Source: Ypsolopha sequella (Eukaryota; Arthropoda; Insecta; Lepidoptera; Ypsolophidae). From it: a stretch of 64,000 nt of DNA. Under the pieces are notes generated by a model. That model was not told the origin of the DNA, ran no database searches, and saw nothing but the letters and a program-made list of their open reading frames with translations. Position 1 is the first letter of the stretch, and every line of letters begins with the position of its first letter. Of the stretch, positions 9,301 through 46,200 are shown in pieces. The stretch covers positions 7,114,201 to 7,178,200 of the forward strand of contig OW204001.1 of the NCBI GenBank assembly GCA_934047225.1, given 5' to 3'. The translations under genes were made by a program, and so were the position numbers.

Positions 9301-12300
9301 AACTTTAAATTATAATTGGCTCAAAAGGACTGTATCCAGAGCCGTTGAACAGTGGAAAAAAAAGTATATCATTTATGGTACACAGGAAAGGTTGCAGGTT
9401 AGCCAACTTCTCGTACATAAATTTAAAAATATATATATTAAAACCCTAGGGCAAAATAATCGACTTTCTGTTCGGTTTTGACGCATAAAAAGGGGGCCTT
9501 TACGAGCACTTGCATTGAAATTAAATATAAATGTAATATCAAGTTTCGCCTGCGCAGTGACTGTCAGTTATACGCACTTCAATCTCGCGTTCGCGTCACA
9601 GTAATACGATAATCGGGTCTGCTCTCCGCCACATACCTCAAGATAGACTTAAAGCCGATTAACGGCATGAACCTGGAGAATAGAGGACACCACGATACTG
9701 ACTTAAGAAGTCTTGAATTTACGTACGCCAAGTCCGAAGCGTGCAGACCGAAAAGTTTACTGTCTTGCTTAGCTTAACGTTGAGGCGCTACGGAAAAAAA
9801 ATCGACACTTAGAACTTGCATATCTGCTTCAGTAAATAATGTATTATTCTGATAAGGAAGTATATATTATTTTTGGAATCTTTTTTTAGGGATCTGTTAA
9901 ACGGAAACGCGATTGGACAAATACAGCTCGATACAAATGTTGATTGAAATGAGGTCTTTTTCAACACCAATTCTCCTGGTTTGACAAGTTGGAATGACAT
10001 ATGGATTGCTATTATATTTTATTAGATGGATTATAACAGTATCTAGGACTTGCGGGTCTACCGCGTAATTCTCATTTTCATCAACATCAACTTGAGATTG
10101 AAATTTGACGTGCGTGCGACAACGCCCGCCTAACATGCCATCTCTTTTGCACGCGTTGAATTTCGCATGCATTTGCTTGAAGTTGATACAAATGAGAATT
10201 ACGCGGTAGAGCCCCTGGTTAAACGAAATTTTGATAGAAACATCAGATTTTTTGCTACTTTTCCACGAATCCGTCCTTCTCGCTCTGAGGTTTTATTCGC
10301 ATATGGAGTAAAAGGGACGCTAAAACTTACATATCGCCTTAATAAAACATTGTTTTTTTATCTTTCATAAAAGTAGACGATTAAACTGGAAAAATTAAAC
10401 GGAAATCTTCAGTGACGTCACATTTTGAAAACTTGCTTGGCGCTTTTGACAGTCAGAAAGCACATTTTGCAGCACACTACACGAAGTTGACGAGTTCCGT
10501 ACATTGTACGACGTACAATTACCACGTATTTACAAATATTTTAGACCATCACTGTTCGCGGATCCGGTTGCGATGAAGTATAATAGAAAACTCCTTGCAT
10601 TTGTATTTTAAAGGCTGACATCAAATAGAACACTGCTAACATTTTAGAAAATGGAAGCATTATTTTAAATTGATTTAAATGTTTTCTCTATTTGAAAAAG
10701 TAATGAAATCTAGAACAAAATGTAAAAGTCAGCGGATGACAATATCTCGTGTATTACAGTCTGACTGATTGAATAAATTTAATTTATTTGTTACACAGTT
10801 TCTGTTGCACCGAAACCCCAGCAGAGATTGGTGAGGATAGCGCCCGTCATGACGAAAACATCGCAGGCGAATACTTCGGTAAGTTTTTGTAAGAATTTCA
10901 AGATAACCATTCTGTATTTTCTCTGAAAATTATTGTCAGTCATATCTGTCTTGGGCGAGACATTTGGCTAGACGGGAAGACGGACCGTGTAACATAGTGG
11001 CAGACGAGGCCAGGAAAGCGTTCAGTGGATAGGCCTGTTGGTGTGCAATGGATGAGTCTGGGGAGAGACCGACAAAAATGGCGTGGAGAAGAAGAGGCCC
11101 ATGCCCAACAGTGGGTGGATGTGGGCTGAATGATGATGTCTGTCTGCTTGAATAACGTGCACCTTGTGATTTTAGGGTTCCATCACAAAATTAAATCCCT
11201 AGTAGCAAAGTAATACAGTGTCTATTTGACAGCTGCATAAATCAAGAATGGCTATTTTAGACAGAGCTGTAAGTTGGCACGTATGTGGTGAATTAATCCA
11301 GGACCTCAAGAAAAGGGGTCTTCGATGACGTCACATTTGGAAAATATTTTCGATATCCGTTGAAAACAGATTTTTTACGTTGACGAAACTCTTTGGTACA
11401 TTTAAGGCCCCTATTCGGAGTAACGGTCCTGCTCCAACGCTTTCATTTTACATTTAACTGTCCTGTTCAGTGGAAGCGGGCCGCTCAGAAATGGCGCGAT
11501 TTCAAAGTGTTTTTATTTATTATTTTGGAATGAGAAGGATGGGTTTTTAATATAACGGCCATTTTATATCTTATTTTGTACCACGTTTATTTTCGTATAA
11601 TTTTTATTTTCCAAAACCCTAACTGTGTTACCACAAAACGGTGTTTAACTTTAGACAGTGTTTAAATCTGTTATTGTCGCTTTTTGTTTCATATTGTAAA
11701 AAAGTGACAGCAACAGATTTAAACACTGTCTAAAGTTAAACACCGTTTTGTAGTAACACCGTTATAGTTTATGCCTATCTTTGTGATTTTAAAATGCAAG
11801 TAATCGCGTATAGAATGGCGGAAATATTAAGATCAAAAAGAGAAACGCAATATCACAGTTTAAAATGGATTTGAAAAGAGAAAAAATTGAGAGAACGCCT
11901 TAAGTTAGAACAGGTGGCGACAGAACAGCAGCGTTCTTTTTGTGTCTTGGCTTCGTGGACAAAAGTTGTGTCACTGACCTTTTCAACAGAATCATACTTA
12001 ACTATCCATTCACATCGGTTAAGTTATTTGTATGTACTCCATATATGTACTTGTACGTGTGATCTGTTAAATAAAAAGCTTTTTATTTAATATTTATTTA
12101 AATCGCGTTAGTTCACAAAGGGTGAAAAACATCAACTTCCAAACAACCAAAGTAAAATTTTACATAATGTTAATTTATTATGTTAAATATTTGTGTAACA
12201 GCAGCCGCGCCCCGGCCAGAGCCTGTTGGCGCCGATCACGCCGGACCGGCCGCGCTCCCCGCGCCCCGCGGCGCTCTCGCCCCCCTCCGAGGAGGACTCG

Positions 12301-15300
12301 AAGGCTGCGCTCAGGCAACTCATAGAGGACGTGAACAAGGAGATCGCTGAACAGACGGACGATAGAACAGAGTCTTACACGGATGACAGCACTAGGGTTC
12401 CGCAGCATGAGGTCGAGGTGGCATTTGAGAGGATGTCGGTGAGTTGGTCGTTCCTTTTATTTTAAACTGACTGACTGCGGACGCCACGCGCAGCGTCTCT
12501 CGCGTGGATCTCGTTTCTCTTGATCCCTTGTGGGTATTTCCCACAATCCCTTTTTAGCGGGTGCCTACGTCATACAATACACCTACAGTTCCTAGGTCCA
12601 GCCATTTGGTCTGGGCGTTGATAGATCAGTCATGCAGTGTATTCTTTTATATATATTCTGTCAAGAAAGTACCGGAAATCGATCATGTAAAAATCATTTA
12701 AAAACGGGATTGTCAAAATTCTTTTTGTTGCTAAGTTGGCACAACTGTCCTCTATACTCACGTGGAGTTTGAGCGTCACTTATAATTTAGTTTATTTTCA
12801 ATGCATGTGCTCGTAAAGGCCCACTTTTTATGCATCAAAACCGAACAGAAAGTCGATTATTTTGCCCTAGGGCTTTATTATTATTTTTTTTTTATTTATT
12901 CATAATGGTTGGCTAACCTGCAGCCTTTCCTGTGTACCATAAATGTCATAATTTTTTTTCCACTGTTTAACGGCTCTGGATACAGTCCTTTTGAGCCAAT
13001 TACAATTTAAAGTTCACAAAATTATATTTGTTTTATTTCCTCACACTATGCATTGAAAAACGTAGTATGATACACGGGCGTAAGAGCAATAAATTACTCG
13101 GTTACGTTTAAAACACTCGCTACGCTCGTGTTTTAAATCGTCCTTGTAATTTATTCCTTTGCGCCCTTGTAGCATAAACTACTATTACAGTGCGCCATTT
13201 TGTCAGTTCATCTCAAGTGTGTTTTGCGATCTTTATAATGGATAAAAATATCATGAAAAGAATGTCTTAAATTTTGCATTGCAAATAGAATTTCCTGTGC
13301 CGAAGCGCTGAAAATGTTACATAATTGTTCGGGCCAATACTTGTCACCAAACACCATCCATTGACGTCACAGCGGCGTGTGCCGCGTGGCGCTGTCGATC
13401 AGTGTGCATTCGGACAGCAGTCGAGTACATTCGTACCATTAAATTAGTGAACACAAAACATAAACATTTTATCATTTACTCTTTCTGCCCAATAACTCCA
13501 GCTGTCACCAGACAATAATGCTTACGGTGAATCGACTTTCTCAAAAACACGTGCGTATGTGTGCATTTAAAAGCGGTCGAGATTTTGTCGAAGATTTGCC
13601 TCGCTTTGGTCGGCCATCAACGTCTTGAACTGAACTTAACATCACTTAAGTATAGGAAATGTTGACTGAAAATCATCGTTTAAGTCTAAGAGAGGTAGCC
13701 GCTAAAATTTCTGTGTCTCACGAATCAATTCCTACCATTTTAAACGATTGTTTGGGCATGAAACGCGTTGCCGCTCGACGAGTGTCGAAAGACCTGAAGT
13801 TTCTGCAAACGTTGCAAACGCTCTGCAAACTTGGAAGGCTCCGAAATGTTTTACTAATGATACAATTATTTGGTTACAAAATAGTCAAAAGCAAATTTTA
13901 AATACTGACTTTGCTCTAGTCTCGATTTATTTATTTGGTAACTCATAATAGACTAGGAGCGCACAGTCGGTAACCGTACATTCGTAGTTGTGTAGAAAAA
14001 AAACACATCAAAATAATAAAGTTGGCTGGCGCAACCAGGAGCATTTTGTTTTTCCGGACTGTACAAAATGCTTAAGGTTGCGCCCAGCCAACCCTGTTTA
14101 TTTTGATGTAGTTTTTTTTCTACACTACTAAACGATGCTGAATCGTTTTTTTTTTTTCAATTAAATCGATCTTCGATAAAATCAGGCTGACCCATGTTAG
14201 TACCAACATGGGACGTTTAAACTTTATTTTTTTAAGCACCTTTTGCCAGCTCTCTGTAAAATAAGTATACATCGAGGTTTTTTCACTTGAAGCCCACATT
14301 CTCTTCGTTGACCACTGTACAAAATCGGATTCCAGAGCCCGGTACAAGAGGAAGACACAAACAACAGCTCAACCTCGCCCCGGGCTGGACACAAACAGCA
14401 GCTGGTCTGCAAGCAGGAAGAGCACCAGGAGCACCCGCTCATCGTGATACCCGCCAGCTATGTTGACGAGCATCACGACTCTAGCTACAGCGACCGGCGT
14501 GACCACTCCGTCGACCTATCCACTTTATATGTGAGTATAATACAGAGCCCGGTACTAGAGGAGGCCACAAGCAGACCTATCCGCTTTATATGTGAGTATC
14601 ATACAGAGCCCGGTACTAGAGGAGGCCACAAGCAGACCTATCCGCTTTATATGTGAGTATAATACAGAGCCCGGTACTAGAGGAGGCCACAAGCAGACCT
14701 ATCCGCTTTATATGTGAGTATCATACAGAGCCCGGTACTAGAGGAGGCCACAAGCAGACCTATCCGCTTTATATGTGAGTATCATACAGAGCCCGGTACT
14801 AGAGGAGGCCACAAGCAGACCTATCCGCTTTATATGTGAGTATCATACAGAGCCCGGTACTAGAGGAGGCCACAAGCAGACCTATCCGCTTTATATGTGA
14901 GTATCATACAGAGCCCGGTACTAGAGGAGGCCACAAGCAGACCTATCCGCTTTATATGTGAGTATCATACAGAGCCCGGTACTAGAGGAGGCCACAAGCA
15001 GACCTATCCGCTTTATATGTGAGTATCATACAGAGCCCGGTACTAGAGGAGGCCACAAGCAGACCTATCCGCTTTATATGTGAGTATCATACAGAGCCCG
15101 GTACTAGAGGAGGCCACAAGCAGACCTATCCGCTTTATATGTGAGTATCATACAGAGCCCGGTACTAGAGGAGGCCACAAGCAGACCTATCCGCTTTATA
15201 TGTGAGTATCATACAGAGCCCGGTACTAGAGGAGGCCACAAGCAGACCTATCCGCTTTATATGTGAGTATCATACAGAGCCCGGTACTAGAGGAGGCCAC

Positions 15301-18300
15301 AAGCAGACCTATCCGCTTTATATGTGAGTATCATACAGAGCCCGGTACTAGAGGAGGCCACAAGCAGACCTATCCGCTTTATATGTGAGTATCATACAGA
15401 GCCCGGTACTAGAGGAGGCCACAAGCAGACCTATCCGCTTTATATGTGAGTATCATACAGAGCCCGGTACTAGAGGAGGCCACAAGCAGACCTATCCGCT
15501 TTATATGTGAGTATCATACAGAGCCCGGTACTAGAGGAGGCCACAAGCAGACCTATCCACTTTATATGTGAGTATCATACAGCGCCCGGTACTAGAGGAG
15601 GCCACAAGCAGACCTATCCACTTTATATGTGAGTATCACACAGAGCCCGGTACTAGAGGAGGCCACAAGCAGACCTATCCACTTTATATGTGAGTATCAT
15701 ACAGAGCCCGGTACTAGAGGAGGCCACAAGCAGACCTATCCACTTTATATGTGAGTATCATACAGAGCCCGGTACTAGAGGAGGCCACAAGCAGACCTAT
15801 TATTATTATTATTAAAAATTCTTTATTGCACAAATAAAACATGTACATAGGCGAGCTTAATGCTAATTAGCATTTTCTTCCAGCTAACCTTTGGCGATGT
15901 AGAACTTGTCAAGGGTAGTGCTTCGATGAGGAAAAATTATTATGACTAGTATTAATTTTAACTAAAATTAATATATACGTTAAATACATAAAAAGGTAAC
16001 TTATAATCAAATACATATACTACATCTATATCCTAATAATACATACACTGATACATATAAATATATAAACACAAATAGTATTTATGAGAGGTTAAACAAA
16101 GATAATAACCTTAAACACGTATTTAGAGTTGACCCATTTGTTTATTTTGTAGATCAACGTAATGTTGATATACCTTGTTTTTAAAAGTAGTCACCGATGT
16201 AGCCTCGCGTATATGAAGTGGAAGATTATTCCAAAGTCGAATTGATGACACAGTGAAGGAATTCGAATACATTTGAGTAGAATGTTCTGGAGTACGGAGA
16301 AGCAGTGCTTTACTTGGACGTAGAAGACGTCCAAGGGAACTAAAGGGGATAAAACGATCTTTGAGATAGGGAGGAGAACATGAGTTGTTCAAAATACTAT
16401 AAAGAAAAGCAACGATGTGGGCATTTCTACGGAACTTAATATTAAGCCAACCCAATTCAGAGCGAGATTGTGAGATATGATCGTACTTTCGAAGACCAAA
16501 GATATAGCGAATACAAAGATTGAGAAGACGGTCAAGTTTGTTTAATAATTCTACAATTAAATCGGGAAAGCAGACATCAGCGTAGTCTAGAATGGGAAGC
16601 AACAGAGAATTAACCAACGTAACCTTAGCGGAGTATGGTAAGAACTTTTGCAGACGCTTTAAGGAATGCATAGATGCAAATATCTTTTTACTTACTTCAG
16701 CAACATGACGATCCCAGCTCATATTGTTCTGAATGTGAAGCCCCAAGTTTTTTACCTCAGTGCAGTAAGTTAGTGAGATTCCATGAAACTTTACTTGAGG
16801 CAGAGTGCTGATGTCAAGCTTATCCACTAGCGCTCTGCTGCCCAAGATCATAACCTGCGTTTTTGCTGGATTTACAAGAAGCCCGAATTGTTCTGACCAT
16901 AGACAAATGGAATCAAGATCTGATGACATCTTTTGTATGGTCACAGGTAACAAATCTTGTTTACAGGATAGATATAATTGCAGATCATCTGCGTAAAGAT
17001 GGAAAGAGCTAAAGTTAATAACGGTAGTAAGGGTGTTGATAAATATAGAGAACAGGAGAGGGGACAGTACGCCACCTTGTGGAACTCCAGCTGTTATGTC
17101 ACACCAATCAGAAAAAGTGTCGTTAAGACGTATACGTTGTTTGCGCCCAATGAGGTACGAATAGAACCAAGTTATGGTAGACTCAGATAAGTTTATAGAC
17201 CGGAGGATAGTGATGAGGATGTCATAATCAACACAGTTAAAAGCATTGCTGAAATCAAGGAGGGTCAAGAGAGTGAGTTGCTGTTCATCCATAGCTTTAC
17301 GAAAATCGTCAGTAATTTTAATGAGAGCAGAGCAAGTGCTGTGGCCAGGACGAAATCCCGATTGAAGGGGGTTAAGGAGATGGTTAGCATGAAGAAAGTT
17401 AAGGAGCTGACGATTTACTACACGTTCAAGCACCTTGGACAGGAAAGGAAGAATCGATATGGGGCGGTAGTGCTTGAATTCAGATGGATCAATGATTTTT
17501 GGCACAGGGACCATGTATGCCATTTTCCAAAGAGAAGGGAATGTATTTGAAGAGAGAGAAAAATTTATAATATGGCTAAGAGAAGGAAGAATAATTTTGA
17601 GAATGGGTAAGAGAAGATCACGGCCCAATGTATCATGACCAATGGCTTTACTAGGGATGGAGAGAATGATCTTTTCGATTGTAAAGTCAGAAACAGGTTC
17701 AAATGAAAATTTTTGGGACGTGACAGGAGGGGCTGCAAGAAGGCGCTGGATTGTTAGATGTTTTAAAGAATGGTCAATAATATGAGGCGGTGAAGAAAAA
17801 TGGTGGTTAAGACCATTTAAGTCAAGTGAAGGGTCTAGTTCCTGGTGACATTTACCAAACCCCAATTTACGCAAAAATCGCCAAAGATTATTTGGGGAAC
17901 AATTTTCTATAGAAGAATGGATGTGTTGGCGTTTTGCATTCCTGATCATTTGATTGCATTTGTTTCGCGCTGCCTTGAACCTATCCCAGTTTTCACCAGT
18001 GGCAACTTTTTTATGCTTGCATCGAAGACTGTCTCTGTACGCCATGGCTTTACGGATCACATCCGTGAGCCAAGGAGCTGGAGCATGTTTCATTCGGACA
18101 GGGTGAATAGGAGCATGGATGTCATATAAGTCAATGACAAGCTCATTAAAAATGGCAACCTTTTCATCGACGGTGGTAAGATGCTCCAACTGTGACCAAT
18201 CTATTCTTTGCGCATCAACAATGAGCTTGTCCCTGTTCATACCCGCGAAGTTACGCTGGAAGAGGACTTTGGGCTTAACTTTTGGGATTTTCAATTTATA

Positions 18301-21300
18301 GGACACGTAAATAAGATCATGGTGGGAGAAACCTGAAGCTGTAAACTGCCCATGACAGGAAACACGATCAGGTTTGGATGTCAAGATAACATCCAGAAGA
18401 GTATGGGAGTCACCGACATGATGGGTAGCATTAAGTTTCAAGATAGAGAGGTTAGTCGAAATTGACAAAGACAACAATTTGCGGGTACGGTAATAAAATT
18501 GTGAATCGGATTCACACAATAAATCCGTATTCAGATCACCCATGATGATGGCATGTTCATAATTAGGTAGGTGGTTAACGAGCAAGCCCTCTAGCGTATC
18601 AAAGTAATCCACTCTAGGAGGAGGATATACTACACAAAGAAGAAATTTTACTGTTTGAAAGTCGAGTTCAATAAAAAGATGTTCCATGGAAGCAGTATAT
18701 TCAGAAGGGGACTTAGAGATAATATTATACTTGATGTCAGAGCGCAGATAGATTGCCACACCTCCACAACCCGCACCTGTACGGTCATTCCTGATAAGGA
18801 CATAGCCTGGAATGGAGACTGAAGTAGATGGAATGGTAGGTTTTAAGTATGATTCTGAAATAAATACTGCATGAATATTATTGAAGTTACTTGAGAAGGT
18901 GGCAAGTAATTCAGAGTGATGGGCAGGAATGCTCTGTGCATTGAGGTGACAGAAGTTCAAACTTTTTTTATGAGGAGTGAAGGTTGTATGAAGCATATCA
19001 CCGAGATGAATAGGTGCTACTGTGTCATCAAGAGCATCAGAAAATAGGTCGTCATCAGAGTCAAGTGATTGAAATAAATCTGAGTTGTGTGAAAGATTCA
19101 TTAAAAACAATACAATACTAATAAAATAAAAATAAATACAGAATATTATATATAAATAAAATAAAATAAAATCTTTAAATTATAAAATTAACTACTTAAC
19201 TTGAGTTCAGGCCTGTAAGAACCACATCACCGCCAGCTCACTTAAAGTAGAAAATTGCACAAGAGTATAAACAGAGATTGGAGAAGTAACGTAACATTAA
19301 CATAAGTAACTTAACATAACTTTTAGGTAGGTACTTATAACAACAACACAACCGTTAAATAAAATCACAAAATAATAATATAAATTGCTAACGTAATGAT
19401 CAAGGTCAAGCCACACAACTTTATACCTACTAATTGTGGTAGTGAGATACGTATTAATGTTGCGGCCTTTGACAGTACGCCCGTGAAACTTTACATAATT
19501 CACTGTACACATTGTTCATGCAGATACTAAACGCAGAAAACGATCCTTGCACTCATCACACTTTGAACTTTAAGCGCTGCAAGCTATAAGTTTTGACTGA
19601 CAGTTCGTAGACTAATCACAGCTGCTTCGAGCGCTTCAGCGCATGAAATTAATGACAGATGAAATGAATTTTATGTGCGGTCAGTTGAGAAAATGTACTG
19701 AAAATTTCAGTGAAAATTTGAAACTGAAAAATTATGAAGAAAGGAAAGTATAATGAAGAAAGTATGTGCTAAGATGGTGCTGTACATTAAAAGTAAGTTA
19801 CATTCTGCTACATAGTTGCTTGAACAAGTTGCTCATGATTACAAAAACATGATCAAGTTACAGAATCACTAAGTTCATTTCCTCATTGTTCTTGCAGATC
19901 TTTCCTTCTTGGACTTGGCCTGCTCTGGATTAGGAGGGTTCGTCACAGAGATGTCTAACAGCTGCTTCATCGAACTGAGTCGGAGCTTTTCACCATCCAC
20001 AAGTTTCAAGTAGACGTTTCCGTCCTGAGACCAACATCTTTGAACACCATAGAGGAGACGTGCTTCATTGAAAATTTGCCTCCGGTGACCCGTCAGAAAT
20101 TCAGCAATTGAGATGTCACTACCCTTCAGTTTCGTCTTGCTTGCCCACACAGATGATCGAGCGGCAAAGTTAGAAAACTTCACAAGTATTGGGCGCGGAC
20201 GACTCTCATCATGAGAAGGCCTCCCAAGACGATAGCAACCCTTGAAAGCAGTTTGTGAAAAGTCTGTTACCTTAAGCTGATCCACAATGGTTTGAGAAAT
20301 CACAAGTTGCACATCCTCAGCTGAAGATTCCTTAATGCCTCGGAACAGTAAGAACTTGCGTCTACCCCGATTATCTATCTCATCAACCACTTGACTGAGG
20401 GATGAAATTTGATCACGAAGGAGATTTACAGCATCCTTCATCCATTCTCTGAAGAGATGGAATTCATTCGCAAGTTGGTCCATGCTCGGTGGTGAGCTCT
20501 TAACAGATGGGATGCGTGCTTCAAAGGCTGCCATACTCTCCAGAAACTTCTTTTCCATGTTGTTGATCGCCCTTTGAGGATCAAAAGCAGTATCAGCAGC
20601 AACTTTGGAGCCTTTTCCCTTAGGTGGTGCCATTGTGTGGATACTCAGCTGTGCAGTGTGTTGTGAGGTTATGTTGACAAAGTGAGGTGATGTTGTTTAC
20701 TTGGTCTATTGCATAGCAAAAGACAGTTCCACCACTTCTTTAAGCAGCAGTGCGGTTTTATTTGCCTCAATGTAAGTTATTCCTATAACCTATCCGCTTT
20801 ATATGTGAGTATCACACAGAGCCCGGTACTAGAGGAGGCCACAAGCAGACCTATCCACTTTATATGTGAGTATCACACAGAGCCCGGTACTAGAGGAGGC
20901 CACAAGCAGACCTATCCACTTTATATGTGAGTATCACACAGAGCCCGGTACTAGAGGAGGCCACAAGCAGACCTATCCACTTTATATGTGAGTATCACAC
21001 AGAGCCCGGTACTAGAGGAGGCCACAAGCATACCTATCCGCTTTATATGTGAGTATCACACAGAGCCCGGTACTAGAGGAGGCCACAAGCATACCTATCC
21101 GCTTTATATGTGAGTATCATAAAGTTCACGTGCTCAAATAGTTTGCACGCCTTAATACGCCGACACCAAGCGTCGGCTACTTCCAAGACACAGCATGTGG
21201 TGTAAAACCGCACTAGTAAAGTTTTTTTTCTATCGTAATTGTTGCATCGCTTATTATTATTTAGACGTACTTACTGCGGGTGTACTCAAACTATTTGAAC

Positions 21301-24300
21301 AAAAAAACTGTACTCTCTCTCATATTTGAACTTGGAGATTAGATTTATGCTGTCCTTTATTACATTTTATCTACTCCCATATACTACAATAATGTAATAA
21401 AAATATGAAAAGCGGTTTATTCATAAGTACCTACGTTGTTTGACCGATGTTATAATATTACATGTGCGCTGTGATTGGCCAAATTTATTATAGCAGCGCT
21501 AAACCATTAACGGAATCTGAAAATTATATACATTTATCATTATCAGAAATTCAATAAAATATTAGTAACTTGTAAAATAACAAACAAAACAAACTTGTTT
21601 CAGGAGGAGAGGTTCAGGATCGGCAATAGCTTCATGAACTCGGACATTAACGCCTTCCCGCAACCGACGTCGCCGCCAAACTTCGACAACGGTAAGAGCA
21701 GGCCCGGCACTCCCAACAAGATTCGGTCGATTGTTTATTGTTCGAGCATACGTCCATCTCTGACGCACGCATAGAAAGTGTGATAGAGATGGATATACGA
21801 CCGCACGATGTTCGATCGAATTTTGTCGCAATAATCGCCATACATGTGACTCCACAAACAACAACACTACCAGGGGCTCTACCGCGTAATTCTCATTTGT
21901 ATCAACTTCAAGCAAATGCATGCGAAATTCAACGCGTGCAAAAGAGATGGCATGTTAGGCGGACGTCGTCGCACGCACGACAAATTTCAATCTCAAGTTG
22001 ATGTTGATGAAAATGAGAATTACGCGGTAGACCCCCAGTACCGACCCACACAAGCACTCACAAATCACCTTTCAACGAAGTCCAGATGCGCAGGTGAGAA
22101 GCATCCTTCGTTGGCCTTGCCTTTAAGTATATTAAAGGTCCCATGAATCGACGGATAAACTCCGCGCTGGAAGGGGCGTGGCAATTAGTTGTCTCGCTCG
22201 GAGCAACATACCCTGCCTTAGTGCGAGAGAGAAGGTGTAGTTTTTGCCGTAAATGCCCATAAGTTAGTAATTCCGTTCCTATTCAATGATATAGATATAT
22301 TTTGAAATTTTATGGCTTTAATCATTAACTAGACACTGTTAACAAGGATTGCTTGTTGTTATATTTGTGACTAGAATAGACTTTAGCACTGGAAAGTAAT
22401 ATTTAAAATAGTGTGTTTTAGACCCGTTGGAACGAGTTTTTTGATCTCTGCATTTATTTTCCTAAAACATTGTGTTAAAAAAACCGGCCAAGTGCGAGTC
22501 GGACTCGCGCACGAAGGGTTCCGTACCATTATCTATAAAAACGGCAAAAAAAACATGTCTGTTGTATGGGAGCCCCCTTAAATATTTATTTTATTCTGTT
22601 TTTTTTAGTATTTGTTGTTATAGCGGCAACAGAAATACACCATCTGTGAAAATTTCAACTGTCTAACTATCACGGTTCATGAGATACAGCCTGGTGACAG
22701 ACGGACAGTGGAGTCTTAGTAATAGGGTCCCGTTAGTTACCCTTTGGGTAGGGAACCCTAGAAAACAACGGGGAATTATCTAGATATCATCATTAAAAAA
22801 TAAGGCATTATGAAAGAATGACAGAGGAACTCATTTACAGTTTTCTTACGTACTGTTCTTAAGGCGCTCTTATCCCGAAATCAGTTATTTCAAAGTCAAA
22901 TAGAACTTTCAAATATCGTCCAACACTTCCAAAAAAAAAAAAATACGCAATATAGTTCGAACCTCTATCTAGATCTTCCACGTATGTGTTACACGATCAG
23001 ATAAACTTTTCTCGATAGAAATAATTCACGAACACAGCATGTAATAAGGCCATTTAAATCATGCCATTTGCATAATTCCACTCTTTTATTAACGAAACAT
23101 ATCTGGTAATATTGCTCTTTAAATTTTCTAGGTCGACCACGTAAGTGGGTTTTAATAAACACATCCCTTATTTTTAAACAATTTAAAAACCGATAAAAAC
23201 AACGAAAAAGTACAAAAGTTATTTTCTTTACTCCTTACACGTAAAGAAAAAGACAGAGAGTCACTCTTCTGGGATAAGAGCGCCTTAAGAATGATTTTTT
23301 CTTACACAGTAACATTAAACTTCCAGATCTGGACAACCGGCCCCGCAAAGCGTGCAACTGCACCAAGTCTCAATGTCTCAAGTTGTACTGCGACTGCTTC
23401 GCGAACGGGGAGTTCTGTAACCGCTGCAACTGCAACAACTGCCACAACAATCTTGAGAATGAGGAACTCAGGCAGAAGGCGATCCGGGGTTGTCTCGATA
23501 GGAATCCTAACGCTTTTAGGTGAGCGACTTTGATGATGATGATGATGTTGAGGTGGGACGCCTGCTGGGCTCAGGCGGATGGTCGGCTCTCTATTTTGAG
23601 CTATTCCATCCAATTCCCATTGCTTAGAACTTTGGTATCCTAATGTCCCAGAGGCGTTCCCTCCTCAAATCTTCCGCTTCTTTTAATAAATATAAGTATA
23701 TCTGAGTACTCAAGATACTTGAGATCTTCCTCCTTGATGTGGTCATCACCAAGTATCTCCTATCTCAGGCTAGAATATATGAAGCATTCTCCTAAGTAAT
23801 GTTTACTCGTTTCCTCCTCGCCGCAGTGCGGGCACGAGGGATCTTCCTGATGTACCTTCATTATTGACAGATGTATGTTTAGCCTGCAGTGGCCAGTTAG
23901 AATACCCGCCAACATACCTAGGTTGTCTCTGCATAGGTTAAGAATATACTTTACTTTTTTGTAAGGTAAGCGACTTTGCTCGACGACTTAACTTTGTTGC
24001 GGGGATCATAAAACTGTTCGCTTTAACCAAACAAAGGCAGGTGTGACGAGCGGTACAGGCAGATGTCGCTCGTTACCGAGAACTGAAGGATTTGGCTCTA
24101 GACAGAGGACGACGCAAGGTGTTAGATGATAAACGAAATATATCCACTGTACAGACACGACTTTTTACAACTTATTTTTATTTATTTTATTTATGAACAA
24201 AAATCCACAGCAAAAACAGTAAACATAACTAAATATTCAAATTCAAATCTTTATTGTTAGTATATATATATAGGGTATCAAGATGAAGTTGCGATAGCTG

Positions 24301-30300: not shown

Positions 30301-33300
30301 AATTCTTGTACAGTTTGGGCAGAAAACGAATGTAAAATTAATCGCAAATTTATTGAGTTTCGGCGAGGAAGGGGCTGTGCGCGGGGGGATACTGCGCATG
30401 TGACAGATAACGTCAAACGCGCCTTCTGTACTGGCCCGAAATGTACAAGAGCGGTCTTGTTTTGCGCACTGTTTTATAGGCAGCGTTGCTTGCCAGTATC
30501 CCGTTTCTCTCGATCTATGAAAAATTTAATTGATAGAATAGTTCTTCCTTAGAGATCTATTTAGTGGGACCACGACCTCATGATGCAATCAGTGGGAATA
30601 AGTGATGAGACCACGAGCCTTAAACTGGTGGGACAGCGAGTACGGTGGGACAGAATAGGTGGGACCACGAGTCAGAAACCATCCTGTAGGAAATACTGAA
30701 ATGCTCATTTATTTATAAATGTAAATTTACTCGTAATTGTAAAAATACAGTAATCTATCAATAGATAAATAGTTTAAATTATTCATATTACATTAGTAAA
30801 ATTATAAATTTGTTCAATGTCAATGAAATATTATGTTATACAATGTCAAGAACAGTATTTAATTACTAATAATTATAATTATAATAGAACAAAACTTGAA
30901 AAAAGGAATTTTCTGAAATCCTTTCCTTGCGGATGTTTACTTCATACAAGGAACCTAAAGTCTTTATTTCACGTTTTTAGGCCCGGCTGTTCGGTCTAGG
31001 CGAGATCAGTCAATCAGGGTTTTATTTTTTATACTGGGTGTTAATATGATATTGCGGAAGCCGGAAACTGGCGATAGTACTCGTCCATACGAACAACGTT
31101 TACTATGGAACCCAACCCGCGAATCGTGTAAAAAAAAGCTGCTGTTCCATAGAAAAGTGACATAGCTCCGCAACCAAAATGTATGAAACAACTGTTCTTT
31201 TTTCTCGATTTCTCATTTTTTTTGTACGTAATCTTGTTCGTATTGACTAGTACTATTGCCAGTTTCCGGCTTCCGCAACTTCATGTTAACACTCCGTATA
31301 CGGATTTTCTACCACCGATATATAAGGTCTATCAATTTAAATGGAAAGTAATTTAAGAGGTGATTCAGTATCGTTAATACATCACATTCCACTGCAAAGC
31401 ACATTTTTTTGCCGGAACTTTTTTTTCACTTCTCAGTACAAAGTGGTCCGATCAGCTGACTCAGTTTGTATGGACAAGTGAAGAAAAAGTTCGCGCATAA
31501 AAAAGTAATTTGCAGTGGAATGTGATGTATTAACGATACTTCTTCTTCTTAGCGTGTCGATGGCATCAAACTATTATTATTTTAAACCTTTCCGGACCAG
31601 AAAGAGGCCACTTTTATGGCTCTGTCGTTGGCCTCAAAAAGATCGGTCATCGTGCAGGTGGTCGGGCACGATGGACATGACATGACGTGAGCCATGGTTT
31701 GCTGGGTGGCTCCGCAATCGCAGCTCCCGTTATTTGAGAAGCCCCATTTGAAAAGGTTGTGTCTGCAGCGGCCAACCTGGGTGCGCAGGCGGTTAAGCGT
31801 TTTCCAAATAGGCCACGGGTATTTGTTCCCAGGTGCCAGCTGCTCCTGTGCTGGGGCAAATGTGGTAGGAGGAGGGAGTGTTTCTCTCCACCGATAACAT
31901 CTCGCATTTGCTGGACCGTCAGTGAGAGCCTTGGTGCCCTTCAAGAAGCTGTTGCGACTTTTGAGTCGAGGTTGCTCTTGTTGGTACTTGTAGACCGGGT
32001 GCTGCGGGTCAGTTTCTTGCTTCAGCTTCTCCACTGCGCTCGTGATCTCCCTACGGACTGTTGGAGGGGCTATGCCTGCAAGTGGGTACAGCATACCGAG
32101 AGGGGTTGATTTAAGGCAGCCCGTTATAATGCGGCAGGTCTGGTTGAGTGCCACATCTACATCCTTTGCATGGGCTGACCGACACCAGACAGGACATGCG
32201 TATTCTCCAGCTGAGTAACAGAGTGCAAGCCCTGTTGTGCGGAGAACGTCCGGTTTTGCTCCCCACTTTGTGGACGTGAGACGTATTAGCAGGTTGTTTC
32301 GCGTACTCACTTTCTGTTTGATGTTAGCGCAGTTTTTCTTAAAAGTAAGAGACCTGTCGAGTGTTATGCCAAGGTATTTTGGACTGCAGCTGTGTTCGAT
32401 TACCGTCCCTCGCCAAAGGATGTTGAGTTGCCTGTTCGCATCTCGGTTGCGCAGATGGAATACGCATGATTGCGTTTTAGATGGGTTTGGCTTTAGTGCG
32501 TTTGAGTCATAGAATTGGCCAAGACTTTGTAGTGCTATTGTGAGGTTGTCTTCTGCCTCTTCGAAAGTCTTGGATTGTGTGGTCAACGCTAGATCATCCG
32601 CGTAAAGGAAACGCTCAGTGTTGGGGGTGGAAGGCTGGTCATCCGTGTAGATGTTAAATAGGATGGGAGCCAACACACTTCCTTGTGGCAGGCCATTCTT
32701 CTGGCATCGCCAACGGCTTTGCTTCGAGTTGAGGTGGACTTGGAAGCGGCGATTATGGAGCATTTCGCTCAGTATTCGCACAAAGCCGGGGTCTTGCGTA
32801 AGATTTGTGACCTTCCAGAGGAGACGCTTGATGTTTACTGTGTCATAAGCCGCAGATAGGTCTACAAAAATGGCACCAGTTACTTTGCCCAGTTCGTATC
32901 CATTTTCTATGTGTTGTGTTAGCTTTAGTATTTGACTGACGCATGACTTCCCAGGTCTGAAACCGGCCTGTTCTGGAATGAGGACTCGGTCAATTTTGGC
33001 GGTAAGTCGGTTCAAGAAAAGTCTTTCAAAGAGCTTGTACGTTTGACACAACAGTGATATAGGCCGGAAGTTCTTAGCATCATCGGGGAGTTTTCCTGGT
33101 TTGAGAAGGGCGATTACTTTTGATTTTCTCCACTGCTTAGGTATTTTTGCCTCAGAACAACATTTGTTGAAGAGGCTAAGCAGCCATGACACAGACATGG
33201 GGCCCAGGCCACGTAGTTGTTCTGCAGAAATTAGATCGACCCCAGCCGCCTTACCAGTCTTCATGGTCATAATGGCTTTGTCTATCTCTTGTAGCGTGAA

Positions 33301-43200: not shown

Positions 43201-46200
43201 ACTATCCACTTAGATAATTTACGGTTGTTTCTCCCACATAACTCGCTTCTTTTTGTATGAAAAAAAATGGTATCTGGCTCGAAAAAAACAAGTATTAGGT
43301 AGGTGCGACTCCGCCCGCCTTTTTTTTTTTTACGTGGCGTATTTTAAGATTTAGCGCCCTGGGGCTGTAAGGTTTGCCACCCCATAAACAACGAGAAAAA
43401 AGCAAAAAGTGTTGATTTGGGCTAAGAATGTAATGCATGAAAAACTAAAAAGGCCCTACACAGAAATAAACACCATTTATTCAATATATACCTAAATTTT
43501 TTCTAATGGCCAAATTGGTTACAAAATTCTTAAATGACACTATCATAATTAACGGATTTTGTCAAGTCAGCTTATAGACATTAAGAATAACTAATTCTTA
43601 ATTGCTTGTGCCGCCCCTCGCAGCCTGCTGCCCCGGGCCATGGCCCTTTTGGCCCTATACGCCACTGCATAGGGGTGAGCATATTGTCGTACTTACTGTT
43701 GCACTTTACGTCCATACTCGGAAACACCCTGACACCCTCTCACATATTTGTGTTTTTCAGCTATCACACTGTACGAGCTTCATGTCGCGTCGGTGCAGCT
43801 ATCGAAAAAGTTGTTTGAAGCGAGGGAAATAAGTAGCACTGCTTATTTGGTAAGAGCGAAATATTTAGATTTACTGACACATACCGGGAAATAAAAATTT
43901 ATATTAAGGGCGCACCGAGCGTTTGCCTTTGTCTCTGTCTTTTTGTTTACGTGTAAAGAGTAATAAAAATAACCAAACTTTTGCACTTTTTTAAATAAAT
44001 TCTTAGATAAATTACTATCGTGTACGAGGGGCATGCCAAAAGAAATTAGATACTCGAAAATTATAAAATTTATTCTTTATTACAAGTATCGATCTTTTCG
44101 AAGTATTCACCCTGAGCACGTATACACTTTTCCATACGTCTGAACTAATTGGAAAATACCACTGACCACTCTTCTTTAGACACCTCAGAAATCTCGAAAA
44201 TATAGGCAGCCAGTGCATCTTCTTTGCTTTCAAACTTCTTCCCCTTTATTTTTTTTTTTGATTTTTGGAAACAGGTAAAATCACAAGGTGCTAGGTCAGG
44301 GGAATTTGGTGAGTGAGGGAGGATTGACGCATTTTTTGAGTCGAAAAAATCAAGTGTTTTGGCAGACGTGTGCGACGCCGCATTGTCGTGGTGCCCGAGA
44401 AGGCGTCGGATTCCTGACTTCGGTCGCTTGTCACACCAAGCTGATATTACTGTTGGAGCACAAACTGTCACATACCATTCGGAGTTCATCGTTCTTTGAT
44501 TCTCTAGCACTACAGTAGCAATATGATCCGTTTTGCTGAAAAACGAGGCGACCATTTGTTTCTGTGTGCTTCGTGAACGGTGACATTTCGTTGGAGTTGG
44601 CTCATCTTCAAAGCACCATACAGTCGAATGTCACTTTGTTTCGGGATCATAGTTATAAAGCCATGTTTCATCACAAGTCAGTATATCATACACATTTTTT
44701 TTCTCGCCACCATCGAATTTATCTATCATGAACAGGCACCAATCCAACCGACGGTCTTTCTGTTCATCGGTAAGTTTGTGCGGCACCCATCTCAAACAAC
44801 ATTTACGGAGAGAAAGGTGGTCGTGAATTATGGTTTGCATTGCTGCTGATCCAATTCCCTGTTCTCGCTCCAGCTCTACATACATAATTCGTTGGTTTTC
44901 GCGAATAAGTATTCGACTGCACGAACGTTTTCTTCTGTGACCGCGGTTGGCAGCCGAACTGTCTTCGCTTCATCTTTGAGACATCCCCGTCCTCTTTTAA
45001 ATTCAGCGAACCAATTAAATACTGTTGCTCGCGAGCAACCAGACTCACCAAAAGTAGTAGCCAAAAGTTCAAAACATTCTTGAGGCTTAAAACTTTTTTA
45101 TAGTCATAATAAATCATAGCGCGACAATCACTTCGACTGAGCTCCATTGCTGCAAGCGAATTCCCGCCAGATTCTCGGAAAAATGATGCTCATCCAAATA
45201 AAAAAAAAAGAAATGAAGTGCGTTCTATTTTCAGATATATCAACAAACAACCAGCCTATAAGATGATATATAACTTTCCAGTGTCAATCAAAGGAGTAAA
45301 GAGTATCTAACTTCTTTTGGCATGCCCCTCGTATAAACGCTCCACTCATCTATGAACTTTATTTTTGTAAATTAATCATAATATCAAATTGCTTTTTTAT
45401 ATAAAAAAGGAGGGAAATAGAAGAAAAACTTACTCGAAAAGAGGTAATTTTTGTAATTTATTTTATCGAGCAAACTTTATCAAATCGTGTTTCAATCGTG
45501 TATACAGTCTAGCATATATACCCAATAATACCAATATATTTCCCTAGATTTTAATTTAATTGTTTACTACTTCAAACAAAGGTTATAAAAACATGTTTGT
45601 TTGTGTAAAAATCTCGGTGCGCTCTTAAGGTGATATACCGTGCTAGCAAAGGTCCCCGTTACTCCAGGCAGAAAGACCCGCAGTGCGAAAGGGACGGAAT
45701 CGGGGAAAATTGTCAAAAAGTCGGTTTTAAATGAATGCAAAATTAACTAAAATAGCTACAAAAAATTCCATAACCAGTAATTTAGGTATAGTTAAAACCC
45801 ATCTAAATAAATATTTTTCAAGTCTGTATACTATCCTAATTTGTCAGAATATCAAAAAAAGTGTAAATTTAGACCTGATTTCAATAATTATTTCTATCGA
45901 ATGAAATTCCTCCTATCGCGTTTCTGATAGACCAAAATCTAGTAAAAGGTCCCAAAATTGTTATACTAATTTATTTTACTTGGAACTTCATTAAAAGAGC
46001 AGATAAATAACCTCGAAAAGTGTAAATTTTCACGGTATAGCCCCTTAAGATATTCAAGTAAACGACATTTAGGTACTGTATCTCGCTTAGGTACTTGTCT
46101 GTCCTTTCGTTTTTGATAAAGCTGAGCTGGGTACTTCTGGAGCTGAAAAGATTTTTAGGCAATAAGATGGTGGCTGGGTGGTTTCCGTTTACGTTTTAGC

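What the first reader, a model, noticed from the sequence alone, without database searches (positions are those of the whole stretch)
14336..21121. Minisatellite built from a lin-54 exon together with its own splice sites
Seen directly: about 26 units of exactly 61 bp follow lin-54 exon 7. Each unit holds a 46-nt block equal to the first ~24 and last ~20 nt of exon 7, preceded by an acceptor-like catacag and followed by the true donor word gtgagtat. So an internally deleted exon plus 15 nt of intron was amplified in place, giving 26 extra copies of the exon 7 5' splice site downstream of the real one. Known: a 15-nt intron is too short to splice, so the units cannot be spliced to each other. 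Inference: the array supplies competing donors. Using the first or second decoy adds 61 or 122 nt and shifts the frame, and the third meets an in-frame TGA, so any use should truncate LIN54 before both CXC domains. It could act as a dose control, a U1 sponge, or be neutral.
Basis: partly seen in the sequence, partly recalled or inferred. Interest (0 to 1): 0.88.

Follow-up and report, generated by a model that had tools for sequence, protein, structure and literature searches.

The report
Exon-born repeat of copied splice sites
In a moth gene (lin-54), a shortened copy of one exon together with its splice signals stands 26 times in a row right behind the real exon, and these decoys are likely tolerated clutter that would occasionally misdirect splicing rather than a built-in control.

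Summary
Exon 7 of lin-54 (14336-14530) is followed by exactly 26 units of 61 bp. Each unit is the exon's first 28 and last 18 nt plus 12 nt of intron 7 and 3 nt of intron 6, so 26 copies of the 5' splice site lie behind the real one. The organism's own genome gives the history. A segment with exons 7-8 lies on further small contigs: two copies carry arrays of 39 and 28 units, and four array-free copies show exon 7 running straight into native intron 7. Six more contigs keep only the array's tail. Exons 6, 9 and 12 match the window's contig alone. The array arose from exon 7, is probably as old as the segment duplication (about 4.8% diverged), and changes length fast. All 26 decoys match the real donor at -3 to +8, and every inclusion I modelled ends in a stop codon. 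Arrays in the fragments keep nearly the same donors, so no selected function is needed. I favour a leaky, unselected decoy array. The closest precedent is the human IFI6 minisatellite that supplies multiple splice donors. RNA use is untested.

The parts
14336..14530 (+). lin-54 exon 7 (195 nt, phase 0-0); parent of the repeat unit
   Evidence: Exon chain of 12 exons, 566 codons without stop; moth orthologues have the same exon region
14531..14538 (+). true 5' splice site of exon 7, GTGAGTAT
14531..15800 (+). left part of the 61-bp array: units 1-20 and the start of unit 21; decoy donors at 14592+61n, n = 0-19; units 4-16 identical
15795..15800 (.). left copy of LINE target-site duplication ACCTAT
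15801..20787 (-). non-LTR retrotransposon (LINE) inserted antisense inside unit 21; long ORFs 16123-19179 (EN + RT) and 19875-20696, both open as they stand
   Evidence: ORFs; Pfam RVT_1 E 1.2e-32 and endonuclease matches, (none for the second ORF); target duplication and register
20788..20793 (.). right copy of target-site duplication ACCTAT
20788..21109 (+). right part of the array: rest of unit 21 and units 22-26; decoy donors 20805, 20866, 20927, 20988, 21049
21110..21603 (+). 26th decoy donor (21110) running into native intron 7 (GTGAGTATCATAAAGTTCACG...), identical at its start to the array-free copies
21604..21691 (+). lin-54 exon 8 (88 nt, phase 0-1), next true acceptor
23327..23519 (+). 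exon 9, first CXC domain; matches one place in the genome

Best explanation
A 61-bp piece made of the two ends of lin-54 exon 7 plus its own 5' splice site stands 26 times in a row behind the exon, and it likely works as a leaky, unselected decoy array: most transcripts would use the true first donor, while a minority would run on to an early decoy, meet a stop codon and be destroyed. Shown: unit anatomy, 26 decoy donors identical to the real one from -3 to +8, an open 12-exon gene in the window, array-free and array-bearing partial copies elsewhere in the same genome, unit number 26, 39 and 28. Inferred: one tandem duplication from intron position +12 back to -3 before the exon, with 149 nt of the exon lost, followed by unequal exchange; the same exchange between the exon's 3' end and the last unit can erase the array cleanly, which probably explains the array-free copies. 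Predicted and untested: decoys 1-4 (exons of 256-439 nt) compete best because exon definition favours short exons. Extension or single mini-exon inclusion gives a premature stop before the CXC domains in every case modelled, so leakage would lower LIN54 slightly without making a new protein.
For: Array and donors. Exon-end match 41 of 46 versus at most 26 in 20,000 shuffles. U1 pairing -7.4 kcal/mol for the real donor and 26 of 26 decoys; the other 11 lin-54 donors span -5.1 to -9.5. Modelled accessibility is similar: 0.50 real, 0.43-0.53 for the 10 decoys sampled of 26. Stops in 26 of 26 extensions, and in 25 of 25 intact mini-exons plus the LINE-split one, spliced after exon 6 or after exon 7. 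Own-genome copies: two with arrays (39, 28 units), four without, six tail-only. Exons 6, 9 and 12 match only the window's contig. C141 and C64 differ by 11 units although 8,383 bp of flank is 99.976% identical. Precedent: IFI6 transcripts use two downstream repeat units as donors (passage, PMC4526556).
Against: No RNA data: decoy use may be zero, or not small. A paper seen in passages says the intron-proximal of two comparable donors is favoured (PMC6002489), which would make the true donor the least favoured of 27; a minority leak assumes that exon definition wins. Exon 7's own acceptor is among the weakest of the 12 by pyrimidine count (8 of 17; range 8-13), so strong exon definition is not assured. 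No fixed A/B unit difference, where 2.3-2.9 are expected (P 0.05-0.10), hints at recent transfer between copies rather than great age.
Confidence: 0.55

Rival explanations
1. Strictly neutral intronic minisatellite: the true donor is always chosen because exon 7 with its own acceptor is the only well-defined exon, and no decoy is ever used.
For: No sign of constraint on decoy signals (P = 0.36). The array is lost or reduced to a tail in other copies. It sits in the one copy that has exons 6, 9 and 12.
Against: Decoys match the real donor in sequence, U1 energy and modelled accessibility, and IFI6 shows that such units can be used.
Confidence: 0.25
2. Copy-number-set dose control: the number of decoys sets the share of lin-54 transcripts sent to decay, and selection keeps it.
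For: Every extension and mini-exon inclusion modelled is terminating; the array sits in the one copy that has exons 6, 9 and 12; unit number changes fast.
Against: Frame-breaking insertions usually give stops, so this is not special. Decoy motifs are no more conserved than chance. Fragment arrays keep nearly the same donors and are longer. No cross-species conservation shown.
Confidence: 0.07
3. U1 platform: tandem donors recruit U1 and shield the long intron from premature polyadenylation, or help define exon 7.
For: A 61-nt spacing leaves room for a U1 footprint of about -23 to +12 (passage, PMC6002489). 18 AATAAA/ATTAAA words lie in intron 7 on the gene strand, 16 of them inside the antisense LINE. 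U1 protection from intronic polyadenylation is stated for human, mouse and Drosophila (abstract, PMC5499120).
Against: The array is older than the LINE that brings most of those signals; no conservation evidence.
Confidence: 0.05
4. Crowded donors disturb exon 7 recognition so that exon 7 is skipped, which keeps the frame and gives a LIN54 lacking 65 residues.
For: Skipping exon 7 leaves 501 open codons; one butterfly model (Melitaea cinxia, P0029) lacks this region.
Against: A PLIV(I/V/L)P stretch of this exon is kept in 43 of the 58 top-ranked relatives, so the exon seems wanted; upstream donors are reported to enhance the authentic site (passage and cited title).
Confidence: 0.05
5. Assembly artefact: the repeat number or the extra copies come from misassembly.
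For: 13 identical units in a row; three array-free copies are 100% identical over 17-19 kb and may be one place assembled more than once.
Against: The LINE insertion leaves exact 61-bp register, 26.0 units; edge units carry distinct variants; arrays with their own variants on two other contigs.
Confidence: 0.03

Closest known systems
IFI6 (G1P3, 6-16) splice-donor minisatellite in human (Turri, Cuin and Porter 1995)
   Same: A minisatellite whose units provide multiple splice donor sites; two downstream repeat units are used as donors, giving three mRNA species (passage in PMC4526556). The 1995 paper is not held and was seen only as a reference and through citing passages.
   Different: From recall, the IFI6 unit is about 12 nt and little more than a donor consensus. 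Here the unit is a 61-bp shortened exon with acceptor-like and donor ends, traceable to its parent exon, with the array-free arrangement preserved elsewhere in the same genome.
Epstein-Barr virus internal repeat 1 (BamW repeats)
   Same: Each repeat unit hosts exons with their own splice sites, and unit number varies (passages, PMC5686732).
   Different: Units are 3 kb with a promoter and exons W1 and W2 that encode a protein's repeat domain; here units are 61 bp, neighbours are 15 nt apart and every inclusion modelled is frame-breaking.
[quoted passage not shown]
   Same: Tandem duplication across an exon-intron boundary copies splice signals (abstract).
   Different: There one duplication makes a new removable intron; here 26 copies make surplus donors and no new intron is evident.
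Earthworm metallothionein intronic minisatellite and exon duplications (PMC12783039)
   Same: Intronic minisatellite in an invertebrate gene; fourth-exon duplications seen in one clone but absent from the final transcript (passages).
   Different: In the passages seen, the intron-1 repeat is not described as derived from an exon.

Membership tests
Minisatellite / VNTR | Head-to-tail units of roughly 10-100 bp | tested here: met
   61-bp unit, 26.0 copies
Minisatellite / VNTR | Unit number varies between otherwise similar copies | tested here: met
   39 versus 28 units on C141 and C64; their three longest aligned pieces are 98.9-99.98% identical. These are copies in one assembly, not proven alleles
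IFI6-type splice-donor minisatellite | Array begins at an exon's 3' end and each unit carries a 5' splice site | tested here: met
   27 GTGAGTAT words on the gene strand, first is the true donor
IFI6-type splice-donor minisatellite | More than one unit used as donor in transcripts | not testable with these tools
   No RNA data for this organism
Tandem exon duplication (alternative exon cluster) | Complete exon copies that keep the reading frame | tested here: not met
   46 of 195 nt kept; 46 is not a multiple of 3; stop in every inclusion modelled
Tandem exon duplication (alternative exon cluster) | Introns between neighbouring copies long enough to splice | tested here: not met
   15 nt between neighbours; 76 nt only between units two apart
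Poison exon (AS-NMD element) | Inclusion brings a premature stop | tested here: met
   26 of 26 extensions; 25 of 25 intact mini-exons
Poison exon (AS-NMD element) | Conserved and regulated | tested here: inconclusive
   No related moth DNA could be searched; array absent from 4 of 6 exon 7-8 fragments in the same genome; decoy motifs not detectably constrained

The most novel reading that the evidence does not exclude
A gene that regulates its own dose by the length of a self-erasing array of decoy splice sites grown from its own exon: unequal exchange adds or removes decoys, each decoy sends a share of lin-54 transcripts to decay, and exchange between the exon's 3' end and the last unit can delete the whole array in one step and restore the ancestral gene.
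Probability: 0.07. Interest if true: 0.85.

Novelty: new variant of a known kind. Interest (0 to 1): 0.5.

Why it matters
It is a natural test bed for an open point in splicing: what decides between equal 5' splice sites. Here 27 donors with the same core sequence stand in line, 61 nt apart except across the LINE, enough for separate U1 binding by the footprint quoted in PMC6002489, and the true site is the one furthest from the next exon. Simple intron-proximity would ruin the gene; exon definition would save it. The same genome also holds the array-free arrangement and arrays of other lengths, so birth, growth and loss of an exon-derived minisatellite can be read directly. If decoys leak, such arrays would be a source of expression variation that ordinary annotation overlooks.

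Tried and rejected
Selection on decoys: rejected as undemonstrated. Five variable unit sites in the window, none in the 8 donor plus 3 acceptor positions, P = 0.36; fragment arrays also keep donors, with one GTAAGTAT variant unit in each.

Known structured RNA: no Rfam match in window 12000-24000. Viral origin of the unit: no exact match of a 28-nt core in viral contigs. Same-species or related read-through peptide: the 114-aa open frame running from exon 7 into the array had 3 candidates, none at E <= 0.01.

A second case in moths: the Tuta absoluta block repeat (see noticed) was searched; only P0035 itself and a Phthorimaea operculella LIN54 (P0050) came back, so no second assembly confirms it.

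Whether the duplicated segment reaches further: in the stretches fetched, 6 of 6 exon 7-8 fragments show only exons 7 and 8 by tblastn, and exons 6, 9 and 12 match C18 alone. Exons 1-5, 10 and 11 were not searched genome-wide.

Genome-wide count of units by pattern and a genome search with exon 8: not completed.

Papers: Hicks 2010, Hodson 2012 and Turri 1995 are not held; I relied on passages of papers citing them. No row listed in them showed a lin-54 or lepidopteran case of this kind; several lists were capped (for example 8 of 48, 20 of 113), and the library holds open-licence papers only.
Full report
WHAT IS THERE. The window carries a lin-54 gene. Twelve exons between 3384 and 26318 join into 566 codons without a stop, all with GT and AG ends. 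Pfam finds the CXC (TCR, PF03638) domain twice. The best relatives are moth and butterfly LIN54 proteins, with Plutella xylostella first at 54% identity. Exon 7 (counting only exons in the window) is 14336-14530, 195 nt, phase 0 to 0. Moth orthologues carry the same region; a PLIV(I/V/L)P stretch of it is present in 43 of the 58 top-ranked relatives.

Directly behind exon 7 stands a 61-bp tandem array. Each unit reads: GTGAGTAT plus 4 nt (intron 7, +1 to +12), CAG (intron 6, -3 to -1), 28 nt of the exon's start, 18 nt of its end. The two exon ends match the unit consensus at 41 of 46 positions; 20,000 shuffles of the exon gave a mean of 14.8 and a maximum of 26. On the gene strand GTGAGTAT occurs 27 times in the window: the true donor and 26 copies.

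The array is split inside unit 21 by a 4,987-bp LINE on the minus strand, with reverse transcriptase and endonuclease matches and a 6-bp target duplication ACCTAT. Setting it aside with one copy of the duplication gives 1,586 bp, exactly 26.0 units in register, so the LINE entered an existing array. Units 4-16 are identical; variants sit at both edges.

SPLICING ANATOMY. From -3 to +8 all 26 decoys equal the true donor, so modelled U1 pairing is the same, -7.4 kcal/mol; the other 11 lin-54 donors span -5.1 to -9.5. Modelled local accessibility is 0.50 for the true donor and 0.43-0.53 for the 10 decoys sampled of 26. The acceptor-like ends have 7-8 pyrimidines at positions -20 to -4; exon 7's own acceptor has 8 and the 12 real acceptors range from 8 to 13.

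Extending exon 7 to any of the 26 decoys ends in a stop (codon 351 in 24 cases, 330 and 361 in one each) after leaving the normal sequence at codon 310, before the CXC domains. A single mini-exon after exon 6 or after exon 7 also stops, for all 25 intact units and for the one the LINE splits. Chains of two to six copies of one representative mini-exon stop too. Skipping exon 7 keeps the frame (501 codons). Frame-breaking inserts usually terminate, so this alone shows no design.

HISTORY FROM THE SAME GENOME. After many unanswered tries the own-genome search ran (866.8 Mb, 151 contigs). I group the places found as follows. A is the window (C18). B is C141 and C64: exon 7 with 177 of 195 identical bases, exon 8, and arrays of 39 and 28 units without the LINE. 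C is C129, C115, C99 and C65: exon 7 (176 of 195) and exon 8 but no array; the donor runs straight into GTGAGTATCATAAAGTTCACG, the same native intron that follows the last unit in the window. D is six contigs (C150, C119, C82, C50, C39, C35) with a 71-nt remnant: the last 25 nt of the array's last unit plus about 46 nt of intron 7. Of the other exons I searched 6, 9 and 12 genome-wide, and each matches C18 alone; in the stretches fetched, 6 of 6 B and C copies hold exons 7 and 8 and no other lin-54 exon. So the copies look like a partial segment. Three C copies are 100% identical over 17-19 kb, so the number of real copies may be lower than the number of contigs.

Over 1,209-1,210 aligned bases A differs from B by 58 (4.8%) and from C by 55, while B and C differ by 13-15 (1.1-1.2%). 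At the exon sites that separate the copies, the unit shares position 18 with B and C but positions 12, 21 and 22 with A, which places the unit's birth near or before the A versus B/C split. The array was then probably lost in C by exchange between the exon's 3' end and the last unit, which share about 30 bp. The alternative is that B received its array from A: no unit site is fixed differently between A and B where 2.3-2.9 differences are expected (P 0.05-0.10). I cannot exclude that.

Unit number moves fast: C141 and C64 differ by 11 units although 8,383 bp of flank is 99.976% identical. In B the exon's own 3' end carries the array's G variant, changing a Thr codon to Ala; this looks like the array converting coding sequence (inference).

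HOW IT MOST LIKELY WORKS. PMC6002489 (passages) states that the intron-proximal of two comparable donors is favoured, for reasons not known, and that U1 covers about 23 nt upstream and 12 nt downstream of a donor. By that rule the true donor is the worst placed of 27. Against this stands exon definition, which favours short exons; exon 7's own acceptor is not a strong one by pyrimidine count, so this is not assured. The natural precedent points to a leak: in human IFI6 a minisatellite provides several donors, and two downstream units are used (passage in PMC4526556, citing Turri 1995, which was not held). I therefore expect mostly correct splicing with a small leak to the first few decoys, removed by nonsense-mediated decay. 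That step is inference; no RNA was available.

FUNCTION OR NOT. Nothing found demands a selected function. Variable sites avoid the splice signals no more than chance (P = 0.36). The fragments keep the donors almost as well: 38 of 39 and 27 of 28 GTGAGTAT, the odd one in each being GTAAGTAT. Array-free copies exist. Against me: the one copy with exons 6, 9 and 12 does carry the array with 26 of 26 donors unchanged, and no relatives' DNA could be searched, so conservation between species is unknown.

VERDICT. The functional ideas remain open and are not favoured. The kind of thing is known (splice-donor minisatellite); a shortened exon with both splice ends as the unit, in an insect, with its history preserved in one genome, is a new variant as far as my searches go (calls listed in Tried and rejected).

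Noticed in passing
P0035 (Tuta absoluta LIN54 model), residues about 218-375: The gene model repeats a 40-residue block four times just before the CXC domain. The linker PGKPA would fit read-through of a G|GTAAGCC donor, that is exon-8 copies with their own 5' splice site; a CXC2 exon copy follows with VGLCLLFIM between.
   Followed up: partly
L041, L042, L043-L046 (C141, C64, C129, C115, C99, C65): The lin-54 exon 7-8 segment was copied to small contigs, near-identical within groups; it looks like an amplified, perhaps W-linked or heterochromatic, segment.
   Followed up: partly
L035-L040: Six contigs share 98.6-99.2% similar sequence (aligned pieces of 3.5-5.9 kb) that contains a 71-nt remnant of the array's end plus intron 7.
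   Followed up: partly
window 14336-14530 versus C141/C64: Exon 7 differs more between the window and B copies (18 of 195) than the intron 7 to intron 8 segments with exon 8 do (35 of 921; Fisher P 0.0026, not corrected for multiple tests); HPLIVIP became LPLYVIP in the fragments.
   Followed up: partly
window 31582-34563, minus strand: A second long open frame (993 codons) that by eye looks like another non-LTR retrotransposon polyprotein.
   Followed up: no
P0029 (Melitaea cinxia), P0050 (Phthorimaea operculella): P0029's model lacks most of the exon 7 region (possible exon skipping); P0050 has a 29-residue tandem duplication upstream.
   Followed up: no
window 13656-13901 and 44145-44969: Open frames that by eye resemble mariner-type transposase remnants, one of them in lin-54 intron 6.
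   Followed up: no
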